A stretch of DNA of 64,000 nucleotides from Reyranella sp. (GTDB taxonomy: Bacteria > Pseudomonadota > Alphaproteobacteria > Reyranellales > Reyranellaceae). The first letter of the stretch is position 1, and each line of letters starts with the position of its first letter. The stretch is from NCBI RefSeq assembly GCF_017305915.1, contig NZ_JAFKJN010000005.1:1-64000 (forward strand), given 5' to 3'. The notes beneath the pieces were generated by a model. The model ran no database searches. It worked only from the letters and a program-made list of their open reading frames with translations, and had not been told where the DNA came from. A program made the translations under genes and the position numbers. Shown here one piece after another: positions 5,271 to 20,501 of this stretch.

Positions 5271-5422
5271 GGATTTCCCCGGCGGCAAGACAGAGCGACG
5301 TTGCGGTCGGGAAGAAATCCATTGCTCTCGGTGTCCTCGTGGATGAAGGGGCTTACATAGTCGCGCGTTGCAATTTGTTCAACCTTGCACGCAAAGTGCG
5401 CATTGATTAGGCTGGCTCAACC

Positions 5423-5803
5423 ATGCCGATCGTCGACACCGATACGCTCCCGGAAATCCTGATGCGGACGGGCGTGGCCGGTCGCTGGCTGTCCGGTCCC
5501 GAGCACGGCGCTGCAAGCGTCAGCGTGCTGCGCAACTGGGTCGAGCCGGGTGTCACGATCCCGCGCCATCTGCACGACCAGGAGGAGATCGTCCTGGTCG
5601 AGGCCGGTGAGATCTGGGTCGAGATCGACGGCAAGCGCGACGAAGCCAAGCCGGGACAGACGGTCATCATTCCACCACGTGCCGCTCATGCCTGGGGCAC
5701 CGAGCACAGCAAGGCTCAGGTGCTGTTCATCTGGCCGGTGCTCGATCCCTTCGCGCCGGGCAGGAGCACCTATCTGGAGGGCGAGCCGCCAACCGTCGCA
5801 TGA
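5423..5803 (+). CDS. Small cupin-domain protein
   Basis: A single-domain cupin of 126 residues. Cupin motif 1 is RHLHDQEEIVLVEAGEIWV (two His and Glu ligands) and motif 2 is PGQTVIIPPRAAHAWG (third His), so a mononuclear metal site is likely. Substrate unknown. It overlaps the following NTF2-like gene by four bases (ATGA), implying co-translation. The 152 bases upstream separate it from the divergent ABC-F gene and presumably hold promoters in both directions. Confidence 0.8.
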   Translation: MPIVDTDTLPEILMRTGVAGRWLSGPEHGAASVSVLRNWVEPGVTIPRHLHDQEEIVLVEAGEIWVEIDGKRDEAKPGQTVIIPPRAAHAWGTEHSKAQVLFIWPVLDPFAPGRSTYLEGEPPTVA

Positions 5804-6426
5804 TCCAACGACGCACCATCTTCACCAGGCTGCGGCACGCCCTCTTCGCGGTGGCGGTGGCCGCGGTCGCCCTGCCCTCGGCCTTGCGCAGCGCACAGGC
5901 CAAGGAGACGGCGCCGCTCGACCGCAAGGCGATGCTCGACCTGTTCGACAGGCACGTGAACGCCGAGCTCGCGGGCAATCTCGACGTCACCATGGCGACG
6001 ATGAGCGACAGCCCTCACCTCAACCACGTGCCGACCATGGCCGGCGGCGTCGGCCGCGACGGCGTCCACGCCTTCTATCGCGACCATCTCGTCGGCAAGT
6101 TCTTTCCGCCCGACGTGAAGATGACCTCGGTGTCGCGCACGGTCGGCGAGACCGGCATCGTCGACGAGGTGGTGATCGGCTTCACCCATACGACAGCGAT
6201 CGACTGGCTGCTGCCGGGCGTCGCGCCGACCGGCAAGCCGGTCGAGATGGCGGTGGCGGTGATCGTCGGCGTCGAGGACGGCAAGATCACGCACGAGCAC
6301 ATCTACTGGGACCAGGCGAGCGTGCTGGTCCAGATCGGCCTGCTCGATCCCAAGGGCCTGCCGGTCGCCGGCGCGGAGGTCGCCCGCAAGGTCGCCAATC
6401 CCAGCCTGCCGTCCCGCCGCTACTGA
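5800..6426 (+). CDS. Exported SnoaL/NTF2-like protein
   Basis: 208 residues. An N-terminal signal (RHALFAVAVAAVALPSALRS, AQA|KE) predicts export. The mature part has the NTF2-like cone fold pattern: MLDLFDRHVNAELAGNLDVT, HLNHVPTMAGGVGRDGVHAF, YRDHLVG, then a beta-rich half ending GKITHEHIYWDQASVLVQIG. This resembles SnoaL-like polyketide cyclase or ester-cyclase relatives, but the reaction is unknown. It is translationally coupled to the cupin, suggesting a two-gene oxidative or detoxification unit (inference). It ends 10 bases before the convergent epmA. Confidence 0.75.
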   Translation: MIQRRTIFTRLRHALFAVAVAAVALPSALRSAQAKETAPLDRKAMLDLFDRHVNAELAGNLDVTMATMSDSPHLNHVPTMAGGVGRDGVHAFYRDHLVGKFFPPDVKMTSVSRTVGETGIVDEVVIGFTHTTAIDWLLPGVAPTGKPVEMAVAVIVGVEDGKITHEHIYWDQASVLVQIGLLDPKGLPVAGAEVARKVANPSLPSRRY

Positions 6427-6436
6427 GACGGCCCGA

Positions 6437-7444
6437 TCAGCGTACCGGCAGCCACAGCACGTCCTCGATGTGTGCGGCCCCGGTCGCCAGCATGACCAGG
6501 CGATCGAAGCCGAGCGCGATGCCGGCGCAATCCGGCAGGCCGTGATCGAGCGCCGCCAAAAAGTCCCCGTCGACCGGCCAGCGCACGCCGTATAGCCGCT
6601 CCTTCTCGGCCATGTCGGCCTCGAGCCGGGCGCGCTGGATCGCGGGATCGGTCAGCTCGCCAAAGGCGTTGGCCAGCTCGACACCGCAGGCATAGAGCTC
6701 GAAGCGCTCGGCGACGCGCGGATCGCCGGGCTTGGCGCGGGCGAGCGCCGCCATGCCGATCGGGTACTCGCACAGGATGGTCGGCCGGCCGACGCCGAGA
6801 TGCGGCTCGATCCGGTCGAACATGATGCGGAAGAAGACGTCGTCCCACGAATCGCCGTCGTGCTTCCTGACGCCCGACAGCCGCGACAGCGCGTCGGCGT
6901 CGCCGCCCCTGTCGCCGATCGTCGCGAACAGGTCGACACCGGCATGGCGCTCGAACGCCTCCGCCACCGTCAGCCGCTCGGGGGTCGCGCGCGGATCGCA
7001 GGTCCTGTCCTGCCAACGCAGCTCGTTCGCACCGGTCAATGCCAGCAGCGCGGCGCAATCCTCCATGATGGTCCGGTAGCCCGCGCCGGCACGGTACCAT
7101 TCGAGCATGGTGAACTCCGGATGATGCAGCGCCGAGCCCTCGCCGTTGCGGAACACCCGGGCGAACTGGAAGAGCTGCGGCACGCCGCCGGCCAGCAGCT
7201 TCTTCATCGCGAACTCGGGCGAGCTGTGCAGCCAGCGGATGCGCCCGATGCCGTCCGGCGTCTTCCATTCCGTGGTGAAGCCCGCGAGATGCACCTCCGC
7301 GCCCGGCGCGACCTGCAGGATCGGCGTCTCGACCTCGACGAAGCCGTGATCCGCGAACCACTGGCGCATCGCCGCAAGGATGTGCGCCCGCGCCTGCAGG
7401 TACGGCAGGCGGCGAGCAAGCTTGTCGGCGCGCCAGTCGGTCAT
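6437..7444 (-). CDS. epmA: Elongation factor P (R)-beta-lysine ligase
   Basis: A class II lysyl-tRNA-synthetase-like enzyme lacking the anticodon-binding domain (335 residues, usual for EpmA/PoxA/GenX). It ligates (R)-beta-lysine to a lysine of EF-P. Visible are motif 2 (FARVFRNGEGSALHHPEFTM, then LEWYRAG), an active-site block HSSPEFAMKKLLAGG, and motif 3 (GIALGFDRLVML). It starts MTDWRADKLARRLPYLQARA at the ATG at 7444. The likely target, efp, lies 0.6 kb away. The partner aminomutase EpmB is not in the window. It is divergent from the MmcQ-family gene. Confidence 0.92.
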   Translation of the reverse strand: MTDWRADKLARRLPYLQARAHILAAMRQWFADHGFVEVETPILQVAPGAEVHLAGFTTEWKTPDGIGRIRWLHSSPEFAMKKLLAGGVPQLFQFARVFRNGEGSALHHPEFTMLEWYRAGAGYRTIMEDCAALLALTGANELRWQDRTCDPRATPERLTVAEAFERHAGVDLFATIGDRGGDADALSRLSGVRKHDGDSWDDVFFRIMFDRIEPHLGVGRPTILCEYPIGMAALARAKPGDPRVAERFELYACGVELANAFGELTDPAIQRARLEADMAEKERLYGVRWPVDGDFLAALDHGLPDCAGIALGFDRLVMLATGAAHIEDVLWLPVR

Positions 7445-7488
7445 GCCCGACCATCGCACGCGCCGTCCGCGCCGTGTAGGGTGATCGC

Positions 7489-7839
7489 GTGACGCCCAAA
7501 CAGATCGACCGGTTCTGCGCCAGCCTGCCCGCCGCCACGCGCATCGTGCAGTGGGAGGGCGTCGCCGTATTCAAGGTCGGCGGCAAGATGTTCTGCCTGA
7601 TCGCGCCCGACGATCATTCGGTCGGCCGCATCTCGTTCAAGTCGGCGCCCGAGCACTACGACGCGCTGAGCCGCTCACCCGGCTTCCGGCCCGCCCCCTA
7701 CCTCGCGCGCGCCAAATGGGTGTCGGTCGACGATCCGGCGGCGCTGACCGATGCCGAAATGAAGGCCTATATCAAGCGCGCGCACGCGGTGATCGCCGCG
7801 GCGCTGCCCAAGAGGAAGCAGAAGGAACTCGGCCTCTAG
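7489..7839 (+). CDS. MmcQ/YjbR family protein
   Basis: A 116-residue MmcQ/YjbR-fold protein (double-wing-like fold, often annotated DNA-binding; exact role unknown). Sequence marks are IVQWEGVAVFKVGGKMFCLI, RISFKSAPEHYDAL and ARAKWVSVDD. It begins with GTG, with GGGTGA a few bases upstream, 44 bases from the divergent epmA start, so the two share a promoter region. Confidence 0.8.
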   Translation: MTPKQIDRFCASLPAATRIVQWEGVAVFKVGGKMFCLIAPDDHSVGRISFKSAPEHYDALSRSPGFRPAPYLARAKWVSVDDPAALTDAEMKAYIKRAHAVIAAALPKRKQKELGL

Positions 7840-8043
7840 TCTTTCGCTGGGGGCGCGGGCGAGCGCCAGGGCCTCGACCGGCCGCTGCCGCCGCACCACC
7901 AGAACCGGCATTGCGCAGCCGGCGTAACACGCCCAAAGGCTGCCAAGTTGCAGGTACCGCCGCCCTTTGATACAAGCCCGCGCCGGCCTCGCCCTGACCT
8001 GGGTACGAGGCCGAATTCCATTCATCGACCGAGCGGTAACCTT

Positions 8044-8613
8044 ATGAAAGTCCAAGTAAACTCGATCCGCGCCGGCAACGTCATCGACTACAACGGCAAG
8101 CTCTGGGTCGCTTCCAAGGTGCAGCACATCAGCCCCGGCAAGGGCGGCGCCTTCGTCGCCATCGAGGCCAAGGCCCTGCGCGAGGGCAACAAGCTGCAGG
8201 AGCGCTTCCGGTCGGGTGAGATGATCGAGCAGGCGCACATCGAGGAGCGCGACTGCACCTACCTGTACAAGGACGACAACGGCTACACGTTCATGGACAA
8301 GGAGAACTACGAGCAGCTCTCGGTCGGCGGCGACGTGCTCGATCCCGACCAGGCGCGCTGGCTGCAGGACGGCATGGAAGTCCAGGTCTCGCTGCATGAG
8401 GGCTCCCCGGTGGGCGTCACCTTGCCCAAGAGCGTCGTGCTCGCCGTCACCGAGGCCGACGCCGTCGTGAAGGGCCAGACCGCCTCCTCTTCCTACAAGC
8501 CCGCCGTGGTCGAAGGCGGCATCCGCGTGATGGTGCCGCCGCACATCGCCGTCGGCACCCGCCTGGTGATCAACACCGAGGACGGCAGCTACATGGAACG
8601 CGCCAAGGACTGA
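8044..8613 (+). CDS. efp: Translation elongation factor P
   Basis: EF-P relieves ribosome stalling at polyproline and related sequences. The 189-residue three-domain protein has the conserved loop HISPGKGGAF; K33 is the position modified in EF-P proteins of EpmA-containing bacteria. The signature region VTEADAVVKGQTASSSYKPA and VVEGGIRVMVPPHI matches the family. A lysine at the loop tip agrees with the nearby epmA and argues for beta-lysylation rather than rhamnosylation, which uses arginine. Upstream from 7840 to 8043 is a 204-base gap likely holding its own promoter. Confidence 0.96.
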   Translation: MKVQVNSIRAGNVIDYNGKLWVASKVQHISPGKGGAFVAIEAKALREGNKLQERFRSGEMIEQAHIEERDCTYLYKDDNGYTFMDKENYEQLSVGGDVLDPDQARWLQDGMEVQVSLHEGSPVGVTLPKSVVLAVTEADAVVKGQTASSSYKPAVVEGGIRVMVPPHIAVGTRLVINTEDGSYMERAKD

Positions 8614-8742: not shown

Positions 8743-9639
8743 ATGACATTGCCCCCTCGAGATAGACCTGTCGCCCGAGTCGGCCGCGGCCCCCTCGTCA
8801 TGGGCCGCGAGCGTTCCGGCCCGCCCGAGCGCAAGTCGCTGGCGCCGCGCTCGGCCACGATCACGGTGATGATCCGCGCCGTCTTCGCCGCGGCCAAGTC
8901 GCTGAAGCGCGACTTCGGCGAAGTCGAGCAACTGCAGGTTTCCGAGAAGGGCCCGGGCGATTTCGTCAGCCGCGCCGACATCATGGCCGAGCGCACGCTG
9001 CGCAAGGAGCTCGAGCGCACCCGTCCCGAGTACGGCTTCCTCGGCGAGGAAGGCGGCGAGACCAAGGGCGACGGCCGCAACCGCTGGATCGCCGATCCGC
9101 TCGACGGCACCACGAATTTCCTGCACGGCGTGCCGCACTTCGCGATCTCGCTGGCGCTCGAGCGCGACGGCGAGGTGATCGCGGGCGTGATCTACCAGCC
9201 GATCTCCGACGAGTTGTTCTGGTCCGAGAAGGGCAACGGCGCCTTCATCGACACGCCCAACGCCCGCTCGCGCCGCCTGCGCGTCTCGGGCCGCAAGGAT
9301 CCGGCGCGGGCGCTGGTCGCCACCGGCATCCCGCATGTCGGCCGAGGCGATCATCCGACGTACTTGAAGAAGCTCGAAACCGTGATGGGCAAGACCGCCG
9401 GCGTGCGCCGCTGGGGCGCCGGGGCGCTCGACCTCGCCTTCGTCGCCGCCGGCCGCTACGACGCCTTCTTCGAGTTCGGCCTGGCGCCGTGGGACGTCGC
9501 CGCCGGCCTGCTGATGGTGCGCGAGGCGGGCGGCCTGGTGAACGAGGTCGGCGGCGGTGCCTACGCCCTCGGCACGTCGACCAGCATCCTCGCCACCAAT
9601 GCCAGCCTGCGCGACGCGATGGTCGAGATCCTCGCCTGA
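8743..9639 (+). CDS. Inositol monophosphatase family protein
   Basis: A Mg2+-dependent phosphatase of the IMPase/SuhB/CysQ superfamily (substrates: inositol phosphate, PAP or fructose bisphosphate). It shows FLGEEGGETKGDGRNRWIAD and PLDGTTNFLHGVPHFAISLA (metal-binding motif 1) and APWDVAAGLLMVREAGG (motif 2). The core starts near SATITVMIRAVFAAAKSLKR. I chose the ATG at 8743 because a GGAGG sits 9 bases upstream, but that site is part of the repeat; an ATG at 8800 would fit the family length better. Confidence 0.88.
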   Translation: MTLPPRDRPVARVGRGPLVMGRERSGPPERKSLAPRSATITVMIRAVFAAAKSLKRDFGEVEQLQVSEKGPGDFVSRADIMAERTLRKELERTRPEYGFLGEEGGETKGDGRNRWIADPLDGTTNFLHGVPHFAISLALERDGEVIAGVIYQPISDELFWSEKGNGAFIDTPNARSRRLRVSGRKDPARALVATGIPHVGRGDHPTYLKKLETVMGKTAGVRRWGAGALDLAFVAAGRYDAFFEFGLAPWDVAAGLLMVREAGGLVNEVGGGAYALGTSTSILATNASLRDAMVEILA

Positions 9640-9854: not shown

Positions 9855-11165
9855 CTACTTCTTCTGCAGCACATCGAGCAGCACCAGGCTCATCGCCTCG
9901 GCGCCGGTGCGGATGCTGGGCTCGGGAATGGGCGCGAACTCCGGCGAATGGTTGCCGGGAATCGGCTTCTTGGCCGCCATCGCCTCGGCGTAAGCCTTGG
10001 GATCGAGGCCGCCGATGCTGAAATAGAACGACGGCACGCCGGCGATGACGAACTCCGAATAGTCCTCGCTGGCCGAGCCGGGCTCGGGCATCAGCCGCGC
10101 CTTGTCGCCGAACGCCGCCTTCAGCACCGCACCGCTGCGCGCGGCCAGCGCGTCGTCGTTGACCACCGCCTTGGCGCCGGCGGTGAGCTTGATCTCGGGC
10201 TCGGGCGCATTGGCCATCATCGCCACCGCCTTGGCGGTGCGCTCGATGCCGGCCAGCATCCTGGTGCGGGTCTCGTTGTCGTAGGAGCGGATGGTGCCGC
10301 GCACCGTCGCGGTGTCGGGGATGACGTTGCCGGCGTTGCCCGCCTGCACCGAGCCGACGGTGATGACGCCGAACTTCGCGGCATCCTTCTCGCGGCTGAT
10401 CACGCTCTGCACGTCGACGATGAAATGCGCCGCCATCATCACCGGGTCGATGGTGGTGTGCGGCCGCGAGCCGTGGCCGCCCTTGCCGACGAAGGTGATC
10501 TGCAGGCCGTCCGAGGTCGAATTGATGACGCCGGGCTTGTAGCTGACATAGCCGAACGGATAGGGCCCGACATGCAGGGCGAAGCCGTAGTCGGGCTTGG
10601 GGAAGCGCGTGAACAGGCCGTCCGCGACCATGCTGTGAGCGCCGCCGCCGCCCTCCTCCGCCGGCTGGCCGACGAACATCAGGGTGCCGCTCCACTGGTC
10701 CTTCATCTCGAGCATGGTCCGGGCGACGGCAGTCCAGGCTGCCATGTGGATGTCATGGCCGCAGGCATGCATCACCGGCGTCTCGGCGCCGCGCAGCGTC
10801 TGCTTCGCCTTGCTGGAATAGGGCAGACCGGTCTTCTCCTCGAGCGGCAGGGCGTCGAGCTCGGTCCGCACCATGACGGTCGGGCCGGGGCCGTTCCTGT
10901 AGATGCCGACGATGCCGGTCTTGCCGACGCCTTCGGTGACCTCGTAGCCCAGCGCCTTCAGCTCGGCGGCGAGCTTGGCCGCCGTGCGCTGCTCCTGGAA
11001 GCCGAGCTCGGGATGCTGATGGATGTCCCTGTAGAGCGCGTCGAGGCGCGAATACTGCGCGTCGAGGCTGCGCGCGATCGCCGCGCGCGTTCCGGCCACG
11101 TCGGCTGCCTGTGCAGCACCCGGCAAGAGCGCCAGCAGCAGCCCGAACGTCCTCAATCTCGCCAT
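9855..11165 (-). CDS. Exported M20 family amidohydrolase
   Basis: A metallopeptidase-like amidohydrolase (M20D, hippurate/IAA-amino-acid hydrolase type), 436 residues. A signal peptide (MARLRTFGLLLALLPGAAQA|AD) indicates the periplasm. Zinc-binding segments: HQHPELGFQE, VRTELDALPLEE, VMHACGHDIHMAAW (the conserved Cys-Gly-His-Asp), FVGQPAEEGGGGAHSM. The dimerisation domain includes GKGGHGSRPHTTIDP. The ATG at 11165 follows GGGGAGA; the upstream extension lacks a site. Substrate unknown: N-acyl amino acids or peptides are plausible. Monocistronic and divergent from the OmpA-like operon. Confidence 0.9.
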   Translation of the reverse strand: MARLRTFGLLLALLPGAAQAADVAGTRAAIARSLDAQYSRLDALYRDIHQHPELGFQEQRTAAKLAAELKALGYEVTEGVGKTGIVGIYRNGPGPTVMVRTELDALPLEEKTGLPYSSKAKQTLRGAETPVMHACGHDIHMAAWTAVARTMLEMKDQWSGTLMFVGQPAEEGGGGAHSMVADGLFTRFPKPDYGFALHVGPYPFGYVSYKPGVINSTSDGLQITFVGKGGHGSRPHTTIDPVMMAAHFIVDVQSVISREKDAAKFGVITVGSVQAGNAGNVIPDTATVRGTIRSYDNETRTRMLAGIERTAKAVAMMANAPEPEIKLTAGAKAVVNDDALAARSGAVLKAAFGDKARLMPEPGSASEDYSEFVIAGVPSFYFSIGGLDPKAYAEAMAAKKPIPGNHSPEFAPIPEPSIRTGAEAMSLVLLDVLQKK

Positions 11166-11285
11166 GGATCTCCCCTCAGCCGTTCGCCTCGAGGTTACCC
11201 CGCGCCCTATTGGCCGCGCCACCGTCATTGGCTATTGTCGCTCGGGTGTCTCCCCGTCCGGGGCCAAAAAATCCTTGAAGGACTG

Positions 11286-11678
11286 ATGCTTATCCCAAGC
11301 TGTTCGGTCGCCGTACGGCGCGTCGCCGTGGCCGTGGCGATGCTGTGCGCGACGGGCGCCATCGCCCAGCAGGCGCTCCCCGCGCCGGCCGTCACCGTTC
11401 CCTTCGTAGCCCAGTCGGTCGAGATCGCCGAGGCCGGCCGCGGTGCGCTCGACGGGCTCGCCAGGTCGCTGTCGGAGCGCGGCGTGCGCCAGCTCGAGGT
11501 GCGCGGCTATGCCAGCGGCGAGGATACCGGCGATGCCCGCAAGATGGCGCTCGCCCGGGCGCTCGCGGTGCGCAGCTACCTGATCGACCAGGGCGTCAAG
11601 GCGCGCATCGAGGTCGGCGCCAATGCCCAGCCGGCGCGGACCGCGCCCAAGGAGCGCGTCGACGTGGTGTTGCAGTGA
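11286..11678 (+). CDS. Small exported OmpA-like protein
   Basis: 130 residues. The signal (VAVAVAMLCATGAIAQQ) is followed by a compact OmpA C-terminal-like domain: VPFVAQSVEIAEAGRGALDG, LEVRGYASGEDTGDARKMAL, ARALAVRSYLIDQGVKARIE. The typical TDxxG...N...R peptidoglycan-binding residues are partly altered (SGEDTGDARKMALARA), so diaminopimelate binding is uncertain. It is the first gene of a three-gene operon with the MotA-like and MotB-like proteins (24-base and 3-base spacers), so it may be an accessory envelope subunit of that complex. Confidence 0.75.
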   Translation: MLIPSCSVAVRRVAVAVAMLCATGAIAQQALPAPAVTVPFVAQSVEIAEAGRGALDGLARSLSERGVRQLEVRGYASGEDTGDARKMALARALAVRSYLIDQGVKARIEVGANAQPARTAPKERVDVVLQ

Positions 11679-11702
11679 CGGCGCCCGCATGAGCACCCCC
11701 TT

Positions 11703-13220
11703 ATGAGCAGCCCCTTCCCCTACCTGATCCGCATGCTGGTGTTCCTCGCCGCCGTGGCGGGGCTCGCCTGGGTGCTGCACGAGGACCTGCTGCGCATCTT
11801 CGAGCACACGCCGACGCTCGACAGCGTCATCCTGGCGGTCCTGGCGCTCGGCATCTTCTTCGTCTTCCGCCAGGTCGTCATCCTGTGGCCGGAGATCCGC
11901 TGGATGCGCCGCTACATGACGCGCGAGCCCGACGCGCCGCCGCCGGAAGCCGAGTCGGTCAACCTGCTGGCGCCGATGGCCGCCATGCTGGGCGAGCGGC
12001 AGGACGAGATCCGGCTGTCACCGACCGCCACGCGCGCGGTGCTGGACGGCATCGCGACCCGGCTCGACGAGCGGCGCGAGCTCGCCCGCTACATGATCGG
12101 CCTGCTGATCTTCCTCGGCCTGCTCGGCACCTTCTGGGGTCTGCTGCAGACCATCGGCGCGGTCGCCGACGCGATCAACAGCCTGCAGGTCAATGCCGGC
12201 GACGCGGTGCAGATGTTCGCCAAGCTCAAGGGCAGCATCGAGGGCCCGCTCAAGGGCATGTCGACGGCGTTCGGCGCCTCGCTGTTCGGCCTCTCGGGCT
12301 CGCTGGTGCTGGGCTTTCTCGAATTGCAGGCCAGCCAGGCGCAGGGCCGCTTCCACAGCGAGCTCGAGCAGTGGCTGGCGCGCGCCACCAGCCTCGGCGG
12401 CTCGAGCCTGGGGCCGATCGCGGCGCAGAGCGTGCCGGCCTATATCGAGGCGCTGCTCGAGCGCAACGCCGAGAGCGCCGACGGGCTGATCCGCGCCGTG
12501 CAGTATGTCGAGGAGAGCCGGCAGGCGGGCGTGGCCGGCAATGCCACCCTGGTCGAGCGGCTGGCGGCGCTGGCCGAGACCATGCGCGAGCAGCAGGGCC
12601 TGCTGGCCCGCTTCACCGAGATGTCGATCGAATTGCGCGGCGCGGTGGCGCGGCTCAGCGAGCGCTTCACCGCCGCCGAATCCGACAGCCAGGCGGCGAT
12701 CGCCCACCAGCAGGCCATCGAGGCCCATCTCGGCCGGCTGGTCGAGGAGACGCTGCGCGCCCGCACCTCGATCGCCGAGGAGCTGCGCGGCGGCCTCGAT
12801 CGCCTCGCCCAGGAGCAGGCGCGCAGCCGCACCCAGGTCGTCGAGGACATGAGCCGCGAGATCGGCCGGCTCGCCGCGCGGCCCGACGCCGAGGCCAACC
12901 GCGAGGCGCTGGCCAACCTGCAGCGCGCGGTCGAGGGCCGGCTCGCCCGCCTGGTCGAGGAGAACGAGCGCAACCGGGGCGCGCTCGCCGAGGAGATGAG
13001 GGTGGCGATCGGCAAGCTCGCCGACCGCTTCGCCGACCTCGACCGCGATTCGGTCTCGGCGCACCGGCGCAACATCGAGGTCAACCTCGCCCATCTGGTC
13101 GAGGGCACGACGCAGAACCGCATCGCGCTCGCCGAGGAGATCCGCGGCGAGATCCGCCTGCTCGCCCGCACCATCGCGCTGACCCAGGTGCAGCGCCAGG
13201 AAACGCCGACCGGCGAATAG
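11703..13220 (+). CDS. MotA/TolQ/ExbB-type proton-channel protein with long coiled coil
   Basis: 505 residues. Transmembrane helices near 8-26 and 38-58, then a cytoplasmic part, a third helix (YMIGLLIFLGLLGTFWGLLQ) and a fourth (TAFGASLFGLSGSLVLGFLE). These carry the conserved Gly/Thr/Pro pattern of MotA/TolQ channel proteins. From about residue 230 to the end it is almost wholly alpha-helical with repeated 'Ahx..LveE..r.r..iaEEirge' units, a long coiled coil. It is the partner of the MotB-like gene 3 bases downstream. The layout resembles ZorA of Zorya systems, but ZorC, ZorD and ZorE are absent. Confidence 0.82.
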   Translation: MSSPFPYLIRMLVFLAAVAGLAWVLHEDLLRIFEHTPTLDSVILAVLALGIFFVFRQVVILWPEIRWMRRYMTREPDAPPPEAESVNLLAPMAAMLGERQDEIRLSPTATRAVLDGIATRLDERRELARYMIGLLIFLGLLGTFWGLLQTIGAVADAINSLQVNAGDAVQMFAKLKGSIEGPLKGMSTAFGASLFGLSGSLVLGFLELQASQAQGRFHSELEQWLARATSLGGSSLGPIAAQSVPAYIEALLERNAESADGLIRAVQYVEESRQAGVAGNATLVERLAALAETMREQQGLLARFTEMSIELRGAVARLSERFTAAESDSQAAIAHQQAIEAHLGRLVEETLRARTSIAEELRGGLDRLAQEQARSRTQVVEDMSREIGRLAARPDAEANREALANLQRAVEGRLARLVEENERNRGALAEEMRVAIGKLADRFADLDRDSVSAHRRNIEVNLAHLVEGTTQNRIALAEEIRGEIRLLARTIALTQVQRQETPTGE

Positions 13221-13223
13221 CCC

Positions 13224-14384
13224 ATGGCCGCCATTTCCCGCCGCCGCGAAAGCGCCGACTACACCTGGCCGGGCTATGTCGACGCGCTGACCACGCTCCT
13301 GATGGTGCTGATCTTCCTGCTGTCGATCTTCAGCGTGGCGCAATTCACCCTGTCGACCGTGCTGTCGAGCCGCGAGACGGCGATCGACACGCTCAACAAG
13401 CAGATCGGCGACCTCGCCAGCCAGCTTTCGCTCGAGAAGCGCTCGGCCGAGGATCTGCAGAAGGACGTCGCGCGCCTCACCCTGCTCAGCCGCCAACTGC
13501 AGGCCGAGCGCGAGAAGCTCAACGCCGACGTGACGGCGCAAAAGCGCAGCGCCGACGACCTCAAGGCCGAGCGCGACCGCCTCAGCGCCATGCTCAAGGA
13601 CGCGACCCGCGAGGTCGAGACCAAGGCGGCGACCGCCGGGGACATGCAGAAGGAGATCGAGCGGCAGAAGCTCGAGCTGACCCGGCTCGCCGCGGCGCTG
13701 GCGGCGGCCAACAACGAGAAGGGCAAGCTGTTCTCCGACCTCACCGAGGAGCAGAAGCAGACGGCCGAGCAGAAGGCCAACACGGTGCGGCTGGCCGCGG
13801 AGATGAATGCGCTGAGGCAAGAGCTCACCCGGCTCAACGCCGCGCTCGAGGCGGCCGACGCCAAGGCCAAGGAGCAGAACGCGCAGATCATCGACCTCGG
13901 CCAGAAGCTCAATAGGGCGCTCGCCAGCAAGGTCGAGGAGCTGGCGCGCTACCGCTCGGAGTTCTTCGGCAAGCTGCGCGAGGCGCTGGCCGGCCAGCGC
14001 GACGTGCAGATCGTCGGCGACCGCTTCGTCTTCCAGTCCGAGGTGCTGTTCCCGTCGGGCTCGGCGCAGCTCCAGCAGAGCGGCGAGAAGCAGCTCGCCT
14101 CGGTGGCGCAGCGGCTGGTCGACATCAGCAGCAAGATCCCCAAGGAGATCAACTGGGTGCTGCAGGTCGACGGCCACACCGACAACAAGCCGATCAACAC
14201 CCGCGAGTTCCCGTCCAACTGGGAGCTCTCCGCAGCTCGCGCCATCGCGGTGGTGAAGTTCCTGAACGCGCAGGGGATTCCCAACGAGCGGTTGGCCGCC
14301 GCGGGCTACGGCGAGTACCAGCCCCTGTCGATGATGGACACCGCGCGCAACCGGCGCATCGAGCTCAAGCTCACCAACCGCTGA
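13224..14384 (+). CDS. MotB/OmpA-family peptidoglycan-anchored protein
   Basis: 386 residues. A single N-terminal helix (DYTWPGYVDALTTLLMVLIF) contains Asp20, at the position of the proton-carrying aspartate of MotB-type proteins. Residues about 50-240 are a periplasmic coiled coil (repeated L-x-x-E/Q-x-x heptads). The C-terminus is an OmpA domain: FPSGSAQLQQSGEKQLASVA, LQVDGHTDNKPINTREFPSN, WELSAARAIAVVKFL, NRRIELKL, with the usual D..TDN..R binding residues. Together with the previous gene it should form an ion-driven force-transducing complex between inner membrane and cell wall. Housekeeping, not flagellar, is inferred from context. Confidence 0.85.
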   Translation: MAAISRRRESADYTWPGYVDALTTLLMVLIFLLSIFSVAQFTLSTVLSSRETAIDTLNKQIGDLASQLSLEKRSAEDLQKDVARLTLLSRQLQAEREKLNADVTAQKRSADDLKAERDRLSAMLKDATREVETKAATAGDMQKEIERQKLELTRLAAALAAANNEKGKLFSDLTEEQKQTAEQKANTVRLAAEMNALRQELTRLNAALEAADAKAKEQNAQIIDLGQKLNRALASKVEELARYRSEFFGKLREALAGQRDVQIVGDRFVFQSEVLFPSGSAQLQQSGEKQLASVAQRLVDISSKIPKEINWVLQVDGHTDNKPINTREFPSNWELSAARAIAVVKFLNAQGIPNERLAAAGYGEYQPLSMMDTARNRRIELKLTNR

Positions 14385-15435: not shown

Positions 15436-16911
15436 CTAGCCCACACCGCGGGCGACCTCGATGCGGCCGCTGCGCTGCGCCTTCTTGAGCGCGGCGTGAT
15501 CCTGCTCGGTCTGCTTGGCATAGGCCAGCGCAAAGGTGCCGATCGCCTCGTCGAGCGCGGCCGAGGTGCCGCAATAGCCCGCGATCATCGCCGGGTCGCC
15601 GCTCTTGGCGTGGGCCAGCGCCAGGGCCCAGCCGCACAGGCCGCAATACTCGACAAAGCCCGACAGGTTGGCGGTCTCGTGCTCGCTAAACTTCACGCTG
15701 CCCTTCATATCGGCGAGCTGGCGGACATAGAAGTGCCGGCCGTCGACCTCGCCCCAACCGAGGAAGATGTCGGGCGAGCCCTGGGTCAGGCGCTGGCCGA
15801 TCACCACCCGCTCGCCGTGCTGGCGGGTATGCAGGTCGAACGACACGTAGGGCGCCAGCACCGAGGGCTGCGCCTGCTTGACCTGCAGGAACAGCGGGTC
15901 GTCGGCATCAACGCCCTGCAGCAGTAGCACCCAGCAGCTGGTGCCGACGCTGCCGACGCCCACCACTTTGCGCGCCGCGTCGACCAGGCGGTAGCGCGAC
16001 AGCAGCGCCTGCCGGTCGGCGGTCAGCGACGCGACGTAGGCGTGCAGCATCTCGTCGAGCGCGACGTCGGCCGGCAGGCCGCTGTCGGAATGGGTCTCGC
16101 GCACGATCAGCGGCACGTCCTCGATCAGGCGGTGCTCGCCGTCGACCTTGGCGGTGAGCTTGTCGAGCGCCTGGACGTGGCCCTTGGTGCGCGCCTTGCT
16201 CATGAAGCGCTCGGCGCCGGCACGCAGGCGCGGCGAGATCGCGTCGAGCACGGCGCGGTCGTCGATGCGCTCGTACCAGACCTGCAGGTAGCTCATCTCG
16301 GCGTAGCGCCGCATGCGCTTGCGGTAGGATTTGACGCATTCGCGCGCCGCCGCCTCGGCCTGAGCGCGGTCGCCGCCCATGAAGCGCACGGCGACGGCGG
16401 CGCTGGCGGCGAGCCGCTTGAGGTCCCATTCCCACGGGCCGGGATGGATCTCGTCGAAGTCGTTGATGGCGAAGATCAGGTTGCGCTCGGCCGAGGCATA
16501 GACGCCGAAGTTGGAGACGTGCATGTCGCCGCACGCCGCCACCTGCAAGCCGCTGACCGGCGTCGCCGCCAGGTCGTCCGTCATCACCGCCGCCGAGCCG
16601 CGCAGGAAGGTGAAGGGCGACGCCAGCATGCGGCCATAGCGCACCGGCACCAGCTTCTGCACCCTGAGCTCGTTCTGCTTCTCGAGGATCGCCACCGGAT
16701 CGGGCCGGTTGGCGCGCGGCGCGTACTCGGCATGGACGCTGCGCGGCACTTTCTGGCGCAGCGCCTTGCCGGCCGCCGCGCGCTCCTCGACAGAGGGCCG
16801 CGGCTTCATGAAGGTCTGGACCAGCGCCTTCTCGCCAACCGCCTCGTGGAGGCCCTCGTGCAGGCGCTGGTAGGCCGGATCCAGATTGGCCGTGAGTTTG
16901 GCCGCGGTCAT
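15436..16911 (-). CDS. DUF2252 protein (kinase-like fold)
   Basis: 491 residues of DUF2252 (COG4320), a family of unknown function with a fold related to aminoglycoside phosphotransferases and kinases. Motifs supporting that fold are CGDMHVSNFGVYASAERNLI (catalytic-loop-like D and N) and FAINDFDEIHPGPWEWDLKR (metal-binding DFD-like). Other family blocks are VPVRYGRMLASPFTFLRGSA and VGVGSVGTSCWVLLLQG. No signal peptide. Its ATG overlaps the BatD stop (ATGA), so it is translated with the MoxR/VWA genes. Its phosphoacceptor, if any, is unknown. Confidence 0.83.
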   Translation of the reverse strand: MTAAKLTANLDPAYQRLHEGLHEAVGEKALVQTFMKPRPSVEERAAAGKALRQKVPRSVHAEYAPRANRPDPVAILEKQNELRVQKLVPVRYGRMLASPFTFLRGSAAVMTDDLAATPVSGLQVAACGDMHVSNFGVYASAERNLIFAINDFDEIHPGPWEWDLKRLAASAAVAVRFMGGDRAQAEAAARECVKSYRKRMRRYAEMSYLQVWYERIDDRAVLDAISPRLRAGAERFMSKARTKGHVQALDKLTAKVDGEHRLIEDVPLIVRETHSDSGLPADVALDEMLHAYVASLTADRQALLSRYRLVDAARKVVGVGSVGTSCWVLLLQGVDADDPLFLQVKQAQPSVLAPYVSFDLHTRQHGERVVIGQRLTQGSPDIFLGWGEVDGRHFYVRQLADMKGSVKFSEHETANLSGFVEYCGLCGWALALAHAKSGDPAMIAGYCGTSAALDEAIGTFALAYAKQTEQDHAALKKAQRSGRIEVARGVG

Positions 16912-18113
16912 GGTAGCCCTCCTGTCGAAAGCGGATTGAGCGGCGGAAGGGCAGTTGTCAATCGATGGTGCGTTTGGCGGAGGCCGGCGACGCCCCGCAG
17001 CAGCGCCCGGCTGCGCGCCGGCGTCCACGGCGCCCCGGCGAACAGCGCCTCCTCCAGCGCCTCGGCCAGCGCGCCGCCCTCGACCGCCCGCGATGCACGG
17101 CGGCGCCAGACGGTGAAAGCGCTGTAAACGGCAGGCAGGTCGCCCGTCCGGCAGGCGTCGGCGAGATCGCGATAGGCCTTCGGCTCGGACACCAGCCAGC
17201 GGTCGCGGCGGGCGTCGTACCACCGCCGGACCCCAGGCTCGATCCGCCGCTCGACGGCCAGCAAGACCAGCAGCGCCAGCATCGGCAGGAGGAATAGCCA
17301 GGGATCGGGCGGTGCCGGCGGCGCTGCAACCTCGACGGTGACGGCCGGCAGCGTCGGCGTCTCGAGCCGCCGCGCCCCGAGGTCCCACCAGAGCTGAGCC
17401 AGCCCGGCCAGGGTGAACCGGCCGCCGGCCTCGAAGACGTAGGTCGCCCTGTCGATGCGCCGGCCGGTCACCGCGCCGCGATCCTGCCGGTCCTCGCTCT
17501 GCGGCGGGTCGACATAGACCCGCACGCCCTGCGGCGCGGCAAAGACGAGCGCGGGCATTGCCATCGCCGGCACGTCGTCGGCCTCGCGCGTCACGATGCG
17601 CACCAGCGCATCGCCCGCCTTGAAAGGGCCCTTCGGCGCAGGGCTCCATTGCTCCGACAAGGTGGCGTGCGCGGTTGCGATCAAGGGCTGCGTGGCATCG
17701 ACGCCGGGCGGCACGGCTATTTCGACCGACGCGGTCGGGCCGGTTGCCGTGCCCGTCACGGTGCCGTCGCGATCGAGCAGGCTGACCTGGGGGGCCGGCA
17801 CCTCGAGCCTGCCGCCGCGGCGGGCGTAGAGCGCGAACTCGAAGCGCTGGCCGGTGTAGGACGCGCCGTCGATCCGGTCGGACATGGTCGTGGCCTGGCT
17901 CTCGAAGCGCAGGATCTGGGCACCGGCGATCTCGGGAAGGACGACCCGCGGCGGCCGCGTCATCTCGCCGGCGAACAGCACGTCGACATAGACGGCGACC
18001 CGCTGGCCGATAAAGCCGTTTTCCGGTTTGACGCTGGTCCGCACGACCACCGGCTGTTGCGCGAAAACCGGCGCGGCGAGCAGCAGCGCCAGCAGAGCGA
18101 GGACGGCCCTCAC
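16908..18113 (-). CDS. BatD-like (Aerotolerance BatD/oxygen tolerance) membrane protein
   Basis: 401 residues. A signal (VRAVLALLALLLAAPVFAQQ) precedes a periplasmic beta-sandwich region: VVVRTSVKPENGFIGQRVAV, YVDVLFAGEMTRPPRVVLPE, RFEFALYARRGGRLEVPAPQ, VYVDPPQSEDRQDRGAVTGR. One transmembrane helix follows (WLFLLPMLALLVLLAVE), then a cytoplasmic helical tail of about 110 residues. This is the BatD layout seen next to BatA/BatB. The start is a GTG that overlaps the TPR gene's TGA. It overlaps DUF2252 downstream. Confidence 0.78.
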   Translation of the reverse strand: MRAVLALLALLLAAPVFAQQPVVVRTSVKPENGFIGQRVAVYVDVLFAGEMTRPPRVVLPEIAGAQILRFESQATTMSDRIDGASYTGQRFEFALYARRGGRLEVPAPQVSLLDRDGTVTGTATGPTASVEIAVPPGVDATQPLIATAHATLSEQWSPAPKGPFKAGDALVRIVTREADDVPAMAMPALVFAAPQGVRVYVDPPQSEDRQDRGAVTGRRIDRATYVFEAGGRFTLAGLAQLWWDLGARRLETPTLPAVTVEVAAPPAPPDPWLFLLPMLALLVLLAVERRIEPGVRRWYDARRDRWLVSEPKAYRDLADACRTGDLPAVYSAFTVWRRRASRAVEGGALAEALEEALFAGAPWTPARSRALLRGVAGLRQTHHRLTTALPPLNPLSTGGLP

Positions 18114-18676
18114 GGCTTTTGCTCGAGCTGGAACAAAAAGCGCGAGCGCAGGAACTCGGCCGGCCGCGGCTCGATGCGCTTCAGCCACAGCGCGCGCACC
18201 GACTGGTCGGACATGGCGCCCTCGGTCCGCGTGTCCTGTCCGCCGCTCTTCTTGTCCTTGTCGTAGACGATCTGATCGGCGCCCTCGCGCTGGTCGCCGG
18301 CGTCGCTGCCGCTCTTGTTGATCTTCGCTCCGCGCGCCGCGGCGAGCGCGCGATTGGCCATCGCATCCGCCCAGCCCGGCCGCAGGGCCAGCGCCTGGTC
18401 GAGGCGCTGGATCGCTTCGTCGTACTTGCCGAGCATGATCAGCGCCGTGCCCTGGTCGTAGGCGGCATCGGCGATGTCGATCCCGCCGAAGGTCTCGGCG
18501 GCAGCCTTGAAGTCGCCGGCGCGGAACTGCGCCACGCCGCGGCGCATCGGATCGGCGAACTCGGCGGCGGCCTCGGCGTAGCGGCCGGCCGCCATCAGGC
18601 GCTGGCCGCGCTGGTCGGGCGTCGACCACACGTCCTGCCAGCCGATCAGCAGGAACAGGAGCGCCAGCCGCTTCAT
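18110..18676 (-). CDS. TPR-containing BatC-like exported protein
   Basis: 188 residues with an N-terminal signal (MKRLALLFLLIGWQDVWSTP). TPR-type helices: GQRLMAAGRYAEAAAEFADP, GVAQFRAGDFKAAAETFGGI, GTALIMLGKYDEAIQRLDQA and LALRPGWADAMANRALAAAR. A charged low-complexity spacer follows, then the C-terminal block SVRALWLKRIEPRPAEFLRS, RFLFQLEQ, typical of BatC/BatB-associated TPR proteins. It likely acts as an adaptor for the VWA proteins at the membrane. Overlaps both neighbours by four bases. Confidence 0.8.
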   Translation of the reverse strand: MKRLALLFLLIGWQDVWSTPDQRGQRLMAAGRYAEAAAEFADPMRRGVAQFRAGDFKAAAETFGGIDIADAAYDQGTALIMLGKYDEAIQRLDQALALRPGWADAMANRALAAARGAKINKSGSDAGDQREGADQIVYDKDKKSGGQDTRTEGAMSDQSVRALWLKRIEPRPAEFLRSRFLFQLEQKP

Positions 18677-19539
18677 GCCAGCACCCAGCCGCGGCGGAAC
18701 CAGCCGATCGCCAGCAGTGCCAGCAGCGGCGTCAGCCAGTAGCCCGCCTCCTGCCAGCGCTCGCCCTCGCCCGGCGCCGCCGGCGGAGCGCCAGCCGTCG
18801 CGAAACGTCGCGACAGCGCCTTGATGTCGGCATCGTCGACGGTGACGCGCACGATGCGCTGGTCGACGACCGGCAAGGGCGTCGGCTCGGGCAGCATGGC
18901 AAGCAGGGTGAACGGCGCATCGAACGCCTGCCCCGGCGCCACCGCGTCGGCGACGACCAGGATCGAGCCGCCCTGCCCGCCCTCCTTCAGGATGCGGCCG
19001 GCGAGCGCCACCGCTTCGTCCAGCCGGTCGCCTTCGCGCGGCATGATCGCCGGCGACAGCGCATGCGCCAGATCGAGCACGATGCCGCGATCCTGGGTCG
19101 GCGGCAGCACCAGATGGGCCGAGCCCGAATAGGCGATCAGCCCGGCCGGCATGCCGTCATGTGCCTTCAGGAGATCGGCGATCTTCTGCCGCGCGCGGTC
19201 GAGGCGGCTTGGCGCCAGGTCACCGGTGGTCATCGACGGCGTAACCTTGAGCACGATCATCAGTGGCCGCTCGGCATCGGCGAAGGGCGACGGCTCGCGC
19301 TGCCACGCCGGCCCCGCGATCGCCAGCGCGCCGACGATCCAGCCGACCAGCAGCAGGTCGTGCGGCGCGATCCGCCAGCGCGAGGAACCGCCGACCACCA
19401 GCAGCTTGAGCAGGTCGGGCTCGATCACCCGCGCCCAGCGGCGCGTGGTGTCCGAGGCGCGGCGGCTCGCCAGCCACAGCAGCAGCGCCGGCACGATCAG
19501 CGCCAGCGCCCACGGCCGCAGGAAATGGAGCTCGCTCAT
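18673..19539 (-). CDS. BatB-like VWA-domain membrane protein with degenerate MIDAS
   Basis: 288 residues. TM helices at about 8-23 (FLRPWALALIVPALLLWLAS) and 50-68 flank a VWA domain that ends in a C-terminal helix (LTPLLALLAIGWF). The expected metal-ion site 'D-x-S-x-S' is read as VLKVTPSMTTGD, so the first aspartate is lysine and metal coordination is probably lost. Otherwise VWA landmarks remain (MPAGLIAYSGSAHLVLPPTQ, GGSILVVADAV). The ATG at 19539 overlaps the BatA stop. A structural or regulatory partner of BatA is inferred. Confidence 0.8.
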   Translation of the reverse strand: MSELHFLRPWALALIVPALLLWLASRRASDTTRRWARVIEPDLLKLLVVGGSSRWRIAPHDLLLVGWIVGALAIAGPAWQREPSPFADAERPLMIVLKVTPSMTTGDLAPSRLDRARQKIADLLKAHDGMPAGLIAYSGSAHLVLPPTQDRGIVLDLAHALSPAIMPREGDRLDEAVALAGRILKEGGQGGSILVVADAVAPGQAFDAPFTLLAMLPEPTPLPVVDQRIVRVTVDDADIKALSRRFATAGAPPAAPGEGERWQEAGYWLTPLLALLAIGWFRRGWVLA

Positions 19540-20501
19540 GCCCGCCGGACCTTCGGCAGCTCTATCAGCATCGCCAGCAGCACGGCGACCAGCAGCGGCA
19601 GCCAGAAGAAGTCCGTCTTCGGCCGGAAGCTCACCGTGTCGACCTTGCGCGTCTCGATCCGGTCGAGCCGGGTGTAGATGTCCGCGAGCTGGGCGCGATC
19701 CATCGCACGGTAGAAGCCGCCGCCGGTCGCCTGCGCCACGTCGCGCAGCGCGGCTTCGTCGAGCTTGTCCTCGCCGGCCGCGGCGGGATCGCCGACGGCG
19801 ATGGTGTGGATGGTGATCTTGTGGTCGTGCGCCACGCGCGCGGCATCGGAAGGCGGCACCTTGCTCGCGGTGTCGTTGCCGTCGGTCAGGGCGATGATGG
19901 TGCGGGCGGGCACGGTCGAGCGCGCGAACAGGTTGACGCCGAGGCCGATGGCATCGCCCAGCGCGGTGCGCGGGCCCGCCATGCCGACCTGCATCTCCTG
20001 CACCAATTGGCGGCAGAGCTTCAGGTCGGTGGTGAACGGCACCAGGCTGTAGGGCGCGTCGCCGAACACCACGACGCCGACCCGGTCGCCTTCGCGCCTG
20101 GCGAGGAACTCGTCGAGCACCTGCTTCACCGCGGTCAGGCGGTCGACCTGCTGGCCAGCGGGATCGGTGAAGTCCTTTGTGTCCATCGAGCCCGAGAGAT
20201 CGACCAGCAGCAGCAGATCGCGCGCCGGCTTGTCCTTGTGCAGCGGCGGCTCGATCCATTGCGGCCGCATCAGCGCGCCGAGGATCAGCAGCCAGGCGAG
20301 CGCCAAGGCGATCGAGCGCCAGACGCCGCGGCGGCCGACCACGATGCCGGGCCGCGGCTCTAGCCCGGTGAGCGCGACCAGGCCGGCGAAGAACGGCACC
20401 CGCACGCCGCGCCGGCTCTGCGCATAGGGCGGCACGAAGCGCCAGACCAGCCACGGCAAGGGCAGCAGCAGGGCGAGCCAGGGGTGCGCGAAGGTCAGCA
20501 T
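19536..20501 (-). CDS. BatA-like VWA-domain membrane protein
   Basis: 321 residues. N-terminal hydrophobic segments (LTFAHPWLALLLPLPWLVW and a second near 62-78), then a von Willebrand factor A domain with an intact MIDAS: LLLLVDLSGSMDTKDF (D101-x-S103-x-S105), the later Thr in GPRTALGDAIG and the Asp in IIALTDGNDT. A C-terminal helix (FFWLPLLVAVLLAMLIE) anchors it, so the VWA domain faces the periplasm. It belongs to the MoxR-associated VWA proteins. It overlaps DUF4381 by 7 bases and BatB by 4. Confidence 0.88.
   Translation of the reverse strand: MLTFAHPWLALLLPLPWLVWRFVPPYAQSRRGVRVPFFAGLVALTGLEPRPGIVVGRRGVWRSIALALAWLLILGALMRPQWIEPPLHKDKPARDLLLLVDLSGSMDTKDFTDPAGQQVDRLTAVKQVLDEFLARREGDRVGVVVFGDAPYSLVPFTTDLKLCRQLVQEMQVGMAGPRTALGDAIGLGVNLFARSTVPARTIIALTDGNDTASKVPPSDAARVAHDHKITIHTIAVGDPAAAGEDKLDEAALRDVAQATGGGFYRAMDRAQLADIYTRLDRIETRKVDTVSFRPKTDFFWLPLLVAVLLAMLIELPKVRRA

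What the first reader, a model, noticed from the sequence alone, without database searches (positions are those of the whole stretch)
11286..14384. Three-gene envelope motor: OmpA-like protein, MotA-like protein with long coiled coil, MotB-like protein
The channel pair has long helical extensions on both sides, Asp20 in the MotB-like TM helix and an OmpA peptidoglycan domain. The layout matches ZorA/ZorB of Zorya defence, but with an additional small OmpA protein in front and none of the effector genes. It may be a housekeeping ancestor or relative of that sensor.
Basis: partly seen in the sequence, partly recalled or inferred. Interest (0 to 1): 0.5.

Follow-up and report, generated by a model that had tools for sequence, protein, structure and literature searches.

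The report
Zorya-like wall motor in Alphaproteobacteria
This is a widespread but hardly studied ion-driven membrane motor that grips the bacterial cell wall; its nearest known relative is a phage-defence machine, yet its setting suggests an everyday job in building or dividing the cell envelope.

Summary
In detail: a small OmpA-fold protein, a MotA/TolQ/ExbB-type A subunit with a long helical tail, and a MotB-like B subunit (Asp20, long arm, OmpA domain) lie in a row. The A family matches 250 of 385 sampled Alphaproteobacteria, mostly once per genome, often beside suhB, efp and thiE, so it looks like inherited core machinery. It is not the flagellar stator: the own genome's only two Pfam MotA_ExbB matches are TolQ/ExbB-type. 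The nearest described relative is type III Zorya ZorAB (tree 97/91, profile scores, a Thr/Ser channel signature), but AU tests do not reject grouping with TolQ/ExbB or MotA. Zorya III partners ZorF and ZorG match 0 of 96 class genomes. In 34 of 80 named loci a Sel1-repeat gene lies nearby that fits the description of RgsF, an essential polar-growth protein. A probable orthologue in unflagellated Komagataeibacter sits at poles and lengthens cells when overexpressed. Best reading: a housekeeping, Zorya-type 5:2 motor that couples peptidoglycan to envelope growth or division. No function was tested here.

The parts
11286..11678 (+). P1: protein with signal-peptide-like start and one complete OmpA-like domain (130 aa)
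   Evidence: Pfam OmpA 34.2 bits; AlphaFold block means of pLDDT 93-98 for residues 31-110, 84 and 90 after that, beta-alpha-beta-alpha-beta-beta; Foldseek first five hits PA0833, FopA1, a bacterial signalling complex (4zhy), OprF and Pal (E 1.5e-7 to 6.4e-7). The Asp that binds diaminopimelate in Pal/OmpA (role recalled) is absent in 26 of 26 rows (24 other residues, 2 gaps); the Arg is kept in 26 of 26.
11703..13220 (+). A subunit (505 aa): four TM helices (my estimate from the model: about 5-24, 37-60, 129-155, 180-210) and a cytoplasmic helical tail (about 246-499)
   Evidence: AlphaFold model; VIA-align Z 11.9 ExbB, 11.8 TolQ, 11.4 ZorA, 9.8 MotA; channel residues Thr143 and Ser193; PADLOC ZorA3 42.1 bits, ZorA1 40.8 bits.
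12702..13178 (+). Tail stretch with diverged copies of one module; the last copy (residues 453-492) resembles the tail end of the rest of the family
   Evidence: Module hits at residues 334-363, 365-392, 405-434, 453-492; in a congener (L011) hits start at 332, 380, 428, 476, a 48-residue period.
13143..13178 (+). Tail-tip motif RGEIRLLARTIA (residues 481-492)
   Evidence: Widened pattern near the C terminus in 40 of 51 A subunits, strict pattern in 28 of 51; widened pattern in 0 of 10,200 shuffled C termini.
13224..14384 (+). B subunit (386 aa): one TM helix with Asp20, long periplasmic helical arm (topology inferred), C-terminal OmpA domain with Asp320 and Arg339
   Evidence: NCBIfam NF006543 (PRK09039.1-2) 413.6 bits over cut-off 305; PADLOC ZorB3 81.6 bits; D20, D320 and R339 invariant in 23 rows.
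8041..8613 (+). efp (elongation factor P), part of the conserved gene neighbourhood, not of the motor
   Evidence: Pfam EFP domains; efp cluster in 42 of 80 named loci.
8809..9639 (+). suhB-type inositol monophosphatase, part of the conserved gene neighbourhood, not of the motor
   Evidence: Pfam Inositol_P 195.6 bits; suhB cluster in 65 of 80 named loci.

Best explanation
P0002 and P0003 form a 5:2 ion-driven inner-membrane motor of a family spread through the Alphaproteobacteria, whose closest described kin is the ZorAB core of type III Zorya, but which does a housekeeping job at sites of envelope growth and division. Proposed mechanism: five A subunits surround two B helices. Ions pass along B Asp20 and the A ring of Thr143/Ser193. 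The B arm carries the OmpA domain out to the peptidoglycan, and its binding there sets the motor free. Rotation or torque is carried by the A tail bundle to its conserved tip, which docks on a cytoplasmic partner of the growth or division machinery. P1, where present, is a periplasmic OmpA-fold partner that has probably lost muropeptide binding. Shown here: gene set, family, fold of A and P1, channel residues, tip motif, distribution, synteny, nearest relatives. Inferred: 5:2 stoichiometry, ion flow, peptidoglycan binding, rotation, docking, localisation and cellular role.
For: Motor: A fold; Asp20 invariant; Thr143/Ser193 in 24 of 24 family rows; B OmpA domain with both muropeptide residues. 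Kinship: tree 97/91 with ZorA3; hhalign score 85 to ZorA3 against 58, 55, 43, 34 to ZorA2-like, tailX, TolQ/ExbB, MotA; in 299 genomes of the phylum the 10 weak hits of the A profile outside the family all lie inside ZorA3 genes. Housekeeping: 250 of 385 class genomes, mostly one match per genome; synteny with suhB/efp/thiE/gap/pgk; kept with its B gene and OmpA domain in a 0.9 Mb genome (G086). Growth/division: the Sel1-repeat neighbour (34 of 80 loci; L097 has a signal-peptide-like start and six Sel1 stretches) fits RgsF as described in PMC7327166, essential by knock-out (PMC5929573); Komagataeibacter motA+/motB+ cells are elongated and chained and the GFP fusions are polar (PMC6570709).
Against: AU tests do not reject grouping with TolQ/ExbB or MotA; the B tree leaves the sister open; structure matches tie ExbB, TolQ and ZorA; PADLOC's ZorA1 model scores P0002 almost as high as ZorA3 (40.8 and 42.1 bits). 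RgsF identity rests on matching features, not on the S. meliloti sequence, and no Sel1 gene was seen in the window's own locus. Komagataeibacter orthology is inferred from sizes, topology and BLAST hits printed in that paper, which used overexpression only and also reports increased colony spreading. suhB, efp and thiE have no evident link to envelope growth. No match was found in 135 of 385 class genomes, and in the control genome of Caulobacter vibrioides the named B family stays under its cut-off, so the system is not indispensable to the class. The passages of PMC7327166 that I read name TolQ and TolR as partners, not this pair; its text has no mention of MotA, MotB or ExbB.
Confidence: 0.5

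Rival explanations
1. Tol/Ton-like energiser: the pair harvests ion flow and P1, with its Pro-rich linker in many relatives, works as the force-carrying third component towards the outer membrane, as TolA or TonB do.
For: Many P1 homologues carry long Pro-rich stretches between their start and the OmpA domain; P1 lies directly in front of the A gene; the AU test does not reject TolQ/ExbB kinship.
Against: P1 was found in only 27 of 80 named loci, so it is not a required component; its N terminus looks like a cleaved signal peptide (by eye), and it is only 130 aa here; Tol-Pal genes exist separately in this genome (a TolQ and, by eye, a Pal-like OmpA lipoprotein within 4 kb); the B subunit has an OmpA domain, which TolR and ExbD lack (recalled).
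Confidence: 0.2
2. A Zorya-type anti-phage system with unlinked or unrecognised effectors.
For: Closest described kin is type III Zorya, which protects E. coli when cloned (PMC8565338, passages).
Against: ZorF and ZorG profiles match 0 of 96 class genomes including this one (both profiles do match at three ZorA3 loci); broad, mostly single presence with recurring synteny, unlike the patchy spread usual for defence systems; scores far below NCBIfam's ZorA cut-offs.
Confidence: 0.12
3. A stator for swimming or gliding motility.
For: MotB-type OmpA domain and four TM helices; Komagataeibacter overexpression raised colony spreading threefold (PMC6570709); the AU test does not reject a grouping with MotA (p 0.182).
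Against: MotA forms a separate group at 100/99; MotA has Ala where the family has Thr143 (11 of 11 against 24 of 24); the window's genome has no flagellar MotA match with a profile that does find MotA in other class genomes; Komagataeibacter has no flagellum.
Confidence: 0.04

Closest known systems
Type III Zorya ZorA/ZorB (PADLOC ZorA3, ZorB3)
   Same: A subunit with long cytoplasmic tail, B subunit with TM Asp and OmpA domain, Thr/Ser signature, best profile and tree neighbour
   Different: No ZorF/ZorG; B has a long periplasmic helical arm that ZorB3 (212-225 aa) lacks; recurring housekeeping synteny; optional P1
Type I and II Zorya ZorAB
   Same: 5:2 motor with long tail and peptidoglycan-binding B (PMC11890865, section 6 part 1 and passages read); same Thr/Ser signature
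   Different: Separate branch of the tree (97/85); ZorC, ZorD and ZorE were not searched for here
NCBIfam NF006543 (PRK09039.1-2) 'peptidoglycan -binding protein'
   Same: P0003 is a member by the curated cut-off (413.6 over 305)
   Different: No difference found; the model's name gives neither partner nor function
TolQ/TolR and ExbB/ExbD
   Same: A fold (Z about 10-12), Thr at position 143
   Different: Thr instead of Ser at position 193 (13 of 13); three TM helices and no OmpA domain in B (recalled)
Flagellar MotA/MotB, the FIT group of PMC12505986
   Same: Four TM helices, B subunit with Asp and OmpA domain
   Different: Ala/Thr signature (11 of 11), separate tree group; in the terms of that paper (abstract and passages read) the family would fall in the generic (GIT) group
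Komagataeibacter hansenii MotA/MotB (PMC6570709)
   Same: 348 and 321 aa, neighbouring genes, four predicted TM helices, listed MotB hits in Rhizobium, Rhodospirillum and Magnetospirillum; probably orthologues
   Different: Published as motility homologues; sequence not available to align here

Membership tests
5:2 ion-driven motors (MotAB, ExbBD, TolQR, ZorAB) | A subunit with the conserved TM core and channel Thr/Ser | tested here: met
   Fold and columns 143/193
5:2 ion-driven motors (MotAB, ExbBD, TolQR, ZorAB) | B subunit with TM Asp, encoded next to A | tested here: met
   D20 invariant in 23 rows; B gene found in 79 of 80 named loci, in 76 of these within -85 to +310 bp of the A gene. 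Two small-genome relatives lack a B gene next to A
5:2 ion-driven motors (MotAB, ExbBD, TolQR, ZorAB) | Five A and two B subunits, ion flow, rotation | not testable with these tools
   Needs cryo-EM and ion-flux assays
Zorya type III | ZorA3 and ZorB3 homologues | tested here: inconclusive
   Nearest kin but a separate clade (95/91 for the family, 100/100 for ZorA3); PADLOC 42.1 and 81.6 bits, far below full members (1089.3 bits for a ZorA3; 379.8 for a ZorB3)
Zorya type III | ZorF and ZorG partner genes (DUF2894 and DUF3348; PADLOC-DB and the text of PMC8565338 use the two names the other way round) | tested here: not met
   0 of 96 class genomes for each profile; the tool warned that no control genome rang, but the profiles match at L244, L246 and L249
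Zorya type III | Anti-phage activity | not testable with these tools
   Needs plating assays
Zorya (NCBIfam ZorA models) | Score over a curated ZorA cut-off | tested here: not met
   Best 17.7 bits against 100
Flagellar MotAB | Inside the MotA group; flagellar MotA column pattern | tested here: not met
   MotA one group at 100/99 without the family; Ala/Thr against Thr/Ser
TolQR / ExbBD | Inside the TolQ/ExbB group; Thr/Thr pattern | tested here: not met
   TolQ/ExbB one group at 85/95, in 88% of 200 bootstrap trees; Thr against Ser at 193. A sister relation is not rejected (p 0.242)
NF006543 / PRK09039 peptidoglycan-binding protein | Score over curated cut-off | tested here: met
   413.6 over 305
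Rhizobial growth and septation (Rgs) network | Physical or genetic link to Rgs proteins | tested here: inconclusive
   Only synteny with an RgsF-like Sel1 gene in 34 of 80 loci; none seen in the window's locus

The most novel reading that the evidence does not exclude
Zorya defence motors and this alphaproteobacterial core motor are two uses of one wall-sensing machine: a housekeeping 5:2 motor that reads peptidoglycan at growth and division sites and reports through a cytoplasmic tail with a fixed tip, which phage defence turned into an intruder sensor. The tail is a modular ruler, lengthened by copies of its own 48-residue end module while the tip is kept.
Probability: 0.3. Interest if true: 0.78.

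Novelty: new variant of a known kind. Interest (0 to 1): 0.58.

Why it matters
Ion-driven 5:2 motors are known to power flagella, gliding, outer-membrane import, division and phage defence. Here a further branch sits in about two thirds of the sampled Alphaproteobacteria (250 of 385), with a named but functionless B subunit. Apart from the probable Komagataeibacter orthologues I saw no study of it in the listings of nine searches of the held library (several lists were cut). If it works at growth zones, it gives rhizobia and their kin a second envelope motor beside Tol-Pal. It would also offer a housekeeping system in which the open question of Zorya (how wall contact becomes a cytoplasmic signal through the tail) can be tested without phage.

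Tried and rejected
Flagellar stator: rejected on tree, signature and absence of a flagellar MotA match in the own genome. TolQ/ExbB member: not inside that group, though sisterhood is not excluded. Mobile defence island: rejected on synteny and distribution. Structure as arbiter between ExbB, TolQ and ZorA: undecided, Z values tie; Foldseek gave no hit at E 0.001 or better for the whole A model, though with probability 1.00 for many. B-subunit tree: shows the family as one clade but not its sister. Proof of Komagataeibacter orthology: no locus titled Komagataeibacter was among those fetched; genomes of group f71 (L270-L273) could not be identified. Proof that the Sel1 neighbour is RgsF by locus tags: no paper held two of the six tags that I tried, which I had recalled. 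Rfam at gathering threshold, tRNA, promoter and terminator scans gave nothing.

Limits of the counts. The strict tail-tip pattern gave 28 of 51 rows; I widened it after seeing the near misses, giving 40 of 51, so the second count is fitted to the rows. Tree rows were chosen by me for spread. Labels: the four ZorA2-like rows scanned of five and both ZorA1 rows score below NCBIfam's cut-offs, and so does the one ZorA3 row scanned, so these carry PADLOC's labels only; the two single rows labelled ncbi2 and ncbi3 pass NCBIfam. ZorF and ZorG were confirmed at three of the seven ZorA3 loci; ZorB3-like genes at all seven.
Full report
WHAT IS THERE. P0001 (11286-11678) is a short protein with a signal-peptide-like start and one OmpA-like domain. 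P0002 (11703-13220) is an A subunit of the MotA/TolQ/ExbB kind. P0003 (13224-14384) is a MotB-like B subunit with Asp20 in its membrane helix. P0003 already has a curated name, NCBIfam NF006543 'peptidoglycan -binding protein' (413.6 bits, cut-off 305), without a function. P0002 is barely seen by Pfam (17.4 bits against a cut-off of 22.9), which may be why it escapes routine naming.

FOLD AND CHANNEL. An AlphaFold model of P0002 from a 51-row alignment has, after the membrane part, helices 246-322, 329-392, 396-442 and 445-499 (block means of confidence in the tail are about 54-79). Structure comparison ties ExbB (Z 11.9), TolQ (11.8) and ZorA (11.4), with MotA at 9.8. Foldseek E-values stay above 0.001, so the fold evidence is supportive, not decisive. 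Two pore positions separate the families. At P0002 position 143, Thr is found in 24 of 24 family rows, 16 of 16 Zorya-labelled rows, 3 of 3 'tailX' rows and 13 of 13 TolQ/ExbB rows, but Ala in 11 of 11 MotA rows. At position 193, Ser is found in the family, Zorya and tailX rows without exception, but Thr in all 13 TolQ/ExbB and all 11 MotA rows. In E. coli TolQ the two Thr are 145 and 178.

KINSHIP. In a tree of 67 A subunits the family is one clade (95/91), joined with ZorA3 of type III Zorya (97/91). All Zorya-labelled and tailX rows and the family form one group (98/93), apart from MotA (100/99) and TolQ/ExbB (85/95). Against this, AU tests do not reject the family with TolQ/ExbB (p 0.242), with MotA (p 0.182), or the family plus ZorA3 with TolQ/ExbB (p 0.376). 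PADLOC's single models do not part ZorA3 from ZorA1 for P0002 (42.1 and 40.8 bits). Other measures agree with the tree: hhalign scores of 85 (ZorA3), 58 (ZorA2-like), 55 (tailX), 43 (TolQ/ExbB) and 34 (MotA); B-profile scores of 68-93 bits for 7 ZorB3, 26-53 for the 6 of 7 alphaproteobacterial MotB that were hit, 37-42 for 2 tailX B and 18-30 for 4 ZorB1/2-type proteins. Searched with the 51-row A profile, 74 of 299 genomes of the phylum match. Of these, 59 are in the class (the own genome included), 5 outside it are strong members, and the remaining 10 weak hits all lie inside ZorA3 genes found (which had 11 genomes with strong ZorA3 matches). The B tree shows the family as one clade (98/95) but leaves its sister open.

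NOT ZORYA BY DEFINITION. Type III operons have ZorF and ZorG (shown at L244, L246 and L249). Both profiles match 0 of 96 class genomes, the window's included (the tool notes that none of its control genomes rang). P0002 stays far below NCBIfam's ZorA cut-offs. Type III Zorya was shown to protect E. coli when cloned (PMC8565338, passages read).

CORE, MOSTLY SINGLE, SYNTENIC. The A family matches 27 of 31 relatives, the own genome included, 250 of 385 class genomes and 214 of the 315 good ones, mostly with one match per genome. Matches occur in genomes of 0.7-0.9 Mb, and in one of 0.9 Mb (G086) both genes and the OmpA domain are in place. No match was found in 135 of 385, and the named B family is not over its cut-off in the Caulobacter vibrioides control. 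In 80 named loci (the best 80 of 584) a B gene is found in 79, and in 76 of these it lies within -85 to +310 bp of A. Upstream clusters are suhB (65 of 80), thiE (47), efp (42), Sel1-repeat (34), gap (29) and pgk (23). Among the 66 loci with at least 5 kb upstream, suhB is in 58. The window has thiE, efp and suhB in this order, with an M20 peptidase gene between suhB and P1 on the other strand.

P1 AND THE TAIL. P1 was found before A in 27 of 80 loci. Many relatives carry a Pro-rich stretch of varying length. Its OmpA fold is complete, yet the Asp that contacts diaminopimelate in OmpA/Pal (role recalled) is missing in 26 of 26 rows, while the Arg is kept in 26 of 26. The B domains keep Asp in 10 of 10 rows and Arg in the 9 that reach that far. 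The A tail ends in a conserved motif in 40 of 51 rows by a widened pattern, 28 of 51 by the first strict one. Of the 11 without it, ten are named loci, most with Hyphomicrobiales-type titles (Rhizobium, Bradyrhizobium, Mesorhizobium, Roseibium and others; a set I drew), and all 11 have short A subunits of 304-342 residues. In the window's genus the A subunit varies from 380 to 701 residues by copies of the end module, with a 48-residue period in L011.

FUNCTIONAL LEADS. (1) In 34 of 80 named loci the cluster contains a Sel1-repeat gene; the Rhizobium copy (L097) has a signal-peptide-like start and six Sel1 stretches (three other copies scanned have five, seven and five). That fits RgsF of S. 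[quoted passage not shown] The gene was confirmed essential by knock-out (PMC5929573, passages). The identity is by features, not by sequence. (2) In unflagellated K. hansenii, MotA and MotB homologues of 348 and 321 aa from neighbouring genes were overexpressed: cells were longer, mostly in chains with regions indicative of septa, colonies spread threefold more, and GFP fusions were polar (PMC6570709, abstract, sections 18, 19 and 22 and passages read).

VERDICT. A real, widespread, hardly studied branch of the 5:2 motors, nearest to type III Zorya, most likely working in envelope growth or division. Its cell role, ion, partner and stoichiometry are inferences.

Noticed in passing
window 968-2095 (-): A 375-aa ORF that looks like a tyrosine-type phage or island integrase, near the left edge before thiE; no tRNA was found in the window. 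Family named by eye, not scanned.
   Followed up: no
window 9855-11228 (-): An M20 peptidase gene lies between suhB and P1 on the other strand, interrupting an otherwise recurring gene order.
   Followed up: partly
window 6437-7459 (-) and 8041-8613 (+): A class II tRNA-synthetase-like protein of 340 aa (EpmA/GenX-like, by recall) near elongation factor P.
   Followed up: partly
window 15436-17649 (-): ORF with a DUF2252 domain, 446 bits in Pfam.
   Followed up: no
window 18110-20501 (-): A TPR gene (18110-18676) and a VWA-domain gene (19536-20501), reminiscent of Bat/aerotolerance operons by recall.
   Followed up: no
L258 370-5449 and L259 2789-7745: A further long-tailed A subunit family (ORFs of 1372 and 1334 aa) with its own OmpA-type B subunit in genomes of the phylum outside the class; the one copy scanned (as L168) is below all NCBIfam ZorA cut-offs.
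   Followed up: partly
L036 and L037: The A gene is present without a recognisable B gene next to it in two small-genome relatives.
   Followed up: partly
L281 about 5111-7636: Gene order B before A in one divergent class member.
   Followed up: no
L052, L085, L105: Family loci in MAGs titled Thiohalocapsa, Gammaproteobacteria and Rhodanobacteraceae; L085 and L105 also carry P1, so the titles may be wrong.
   Followed up: no
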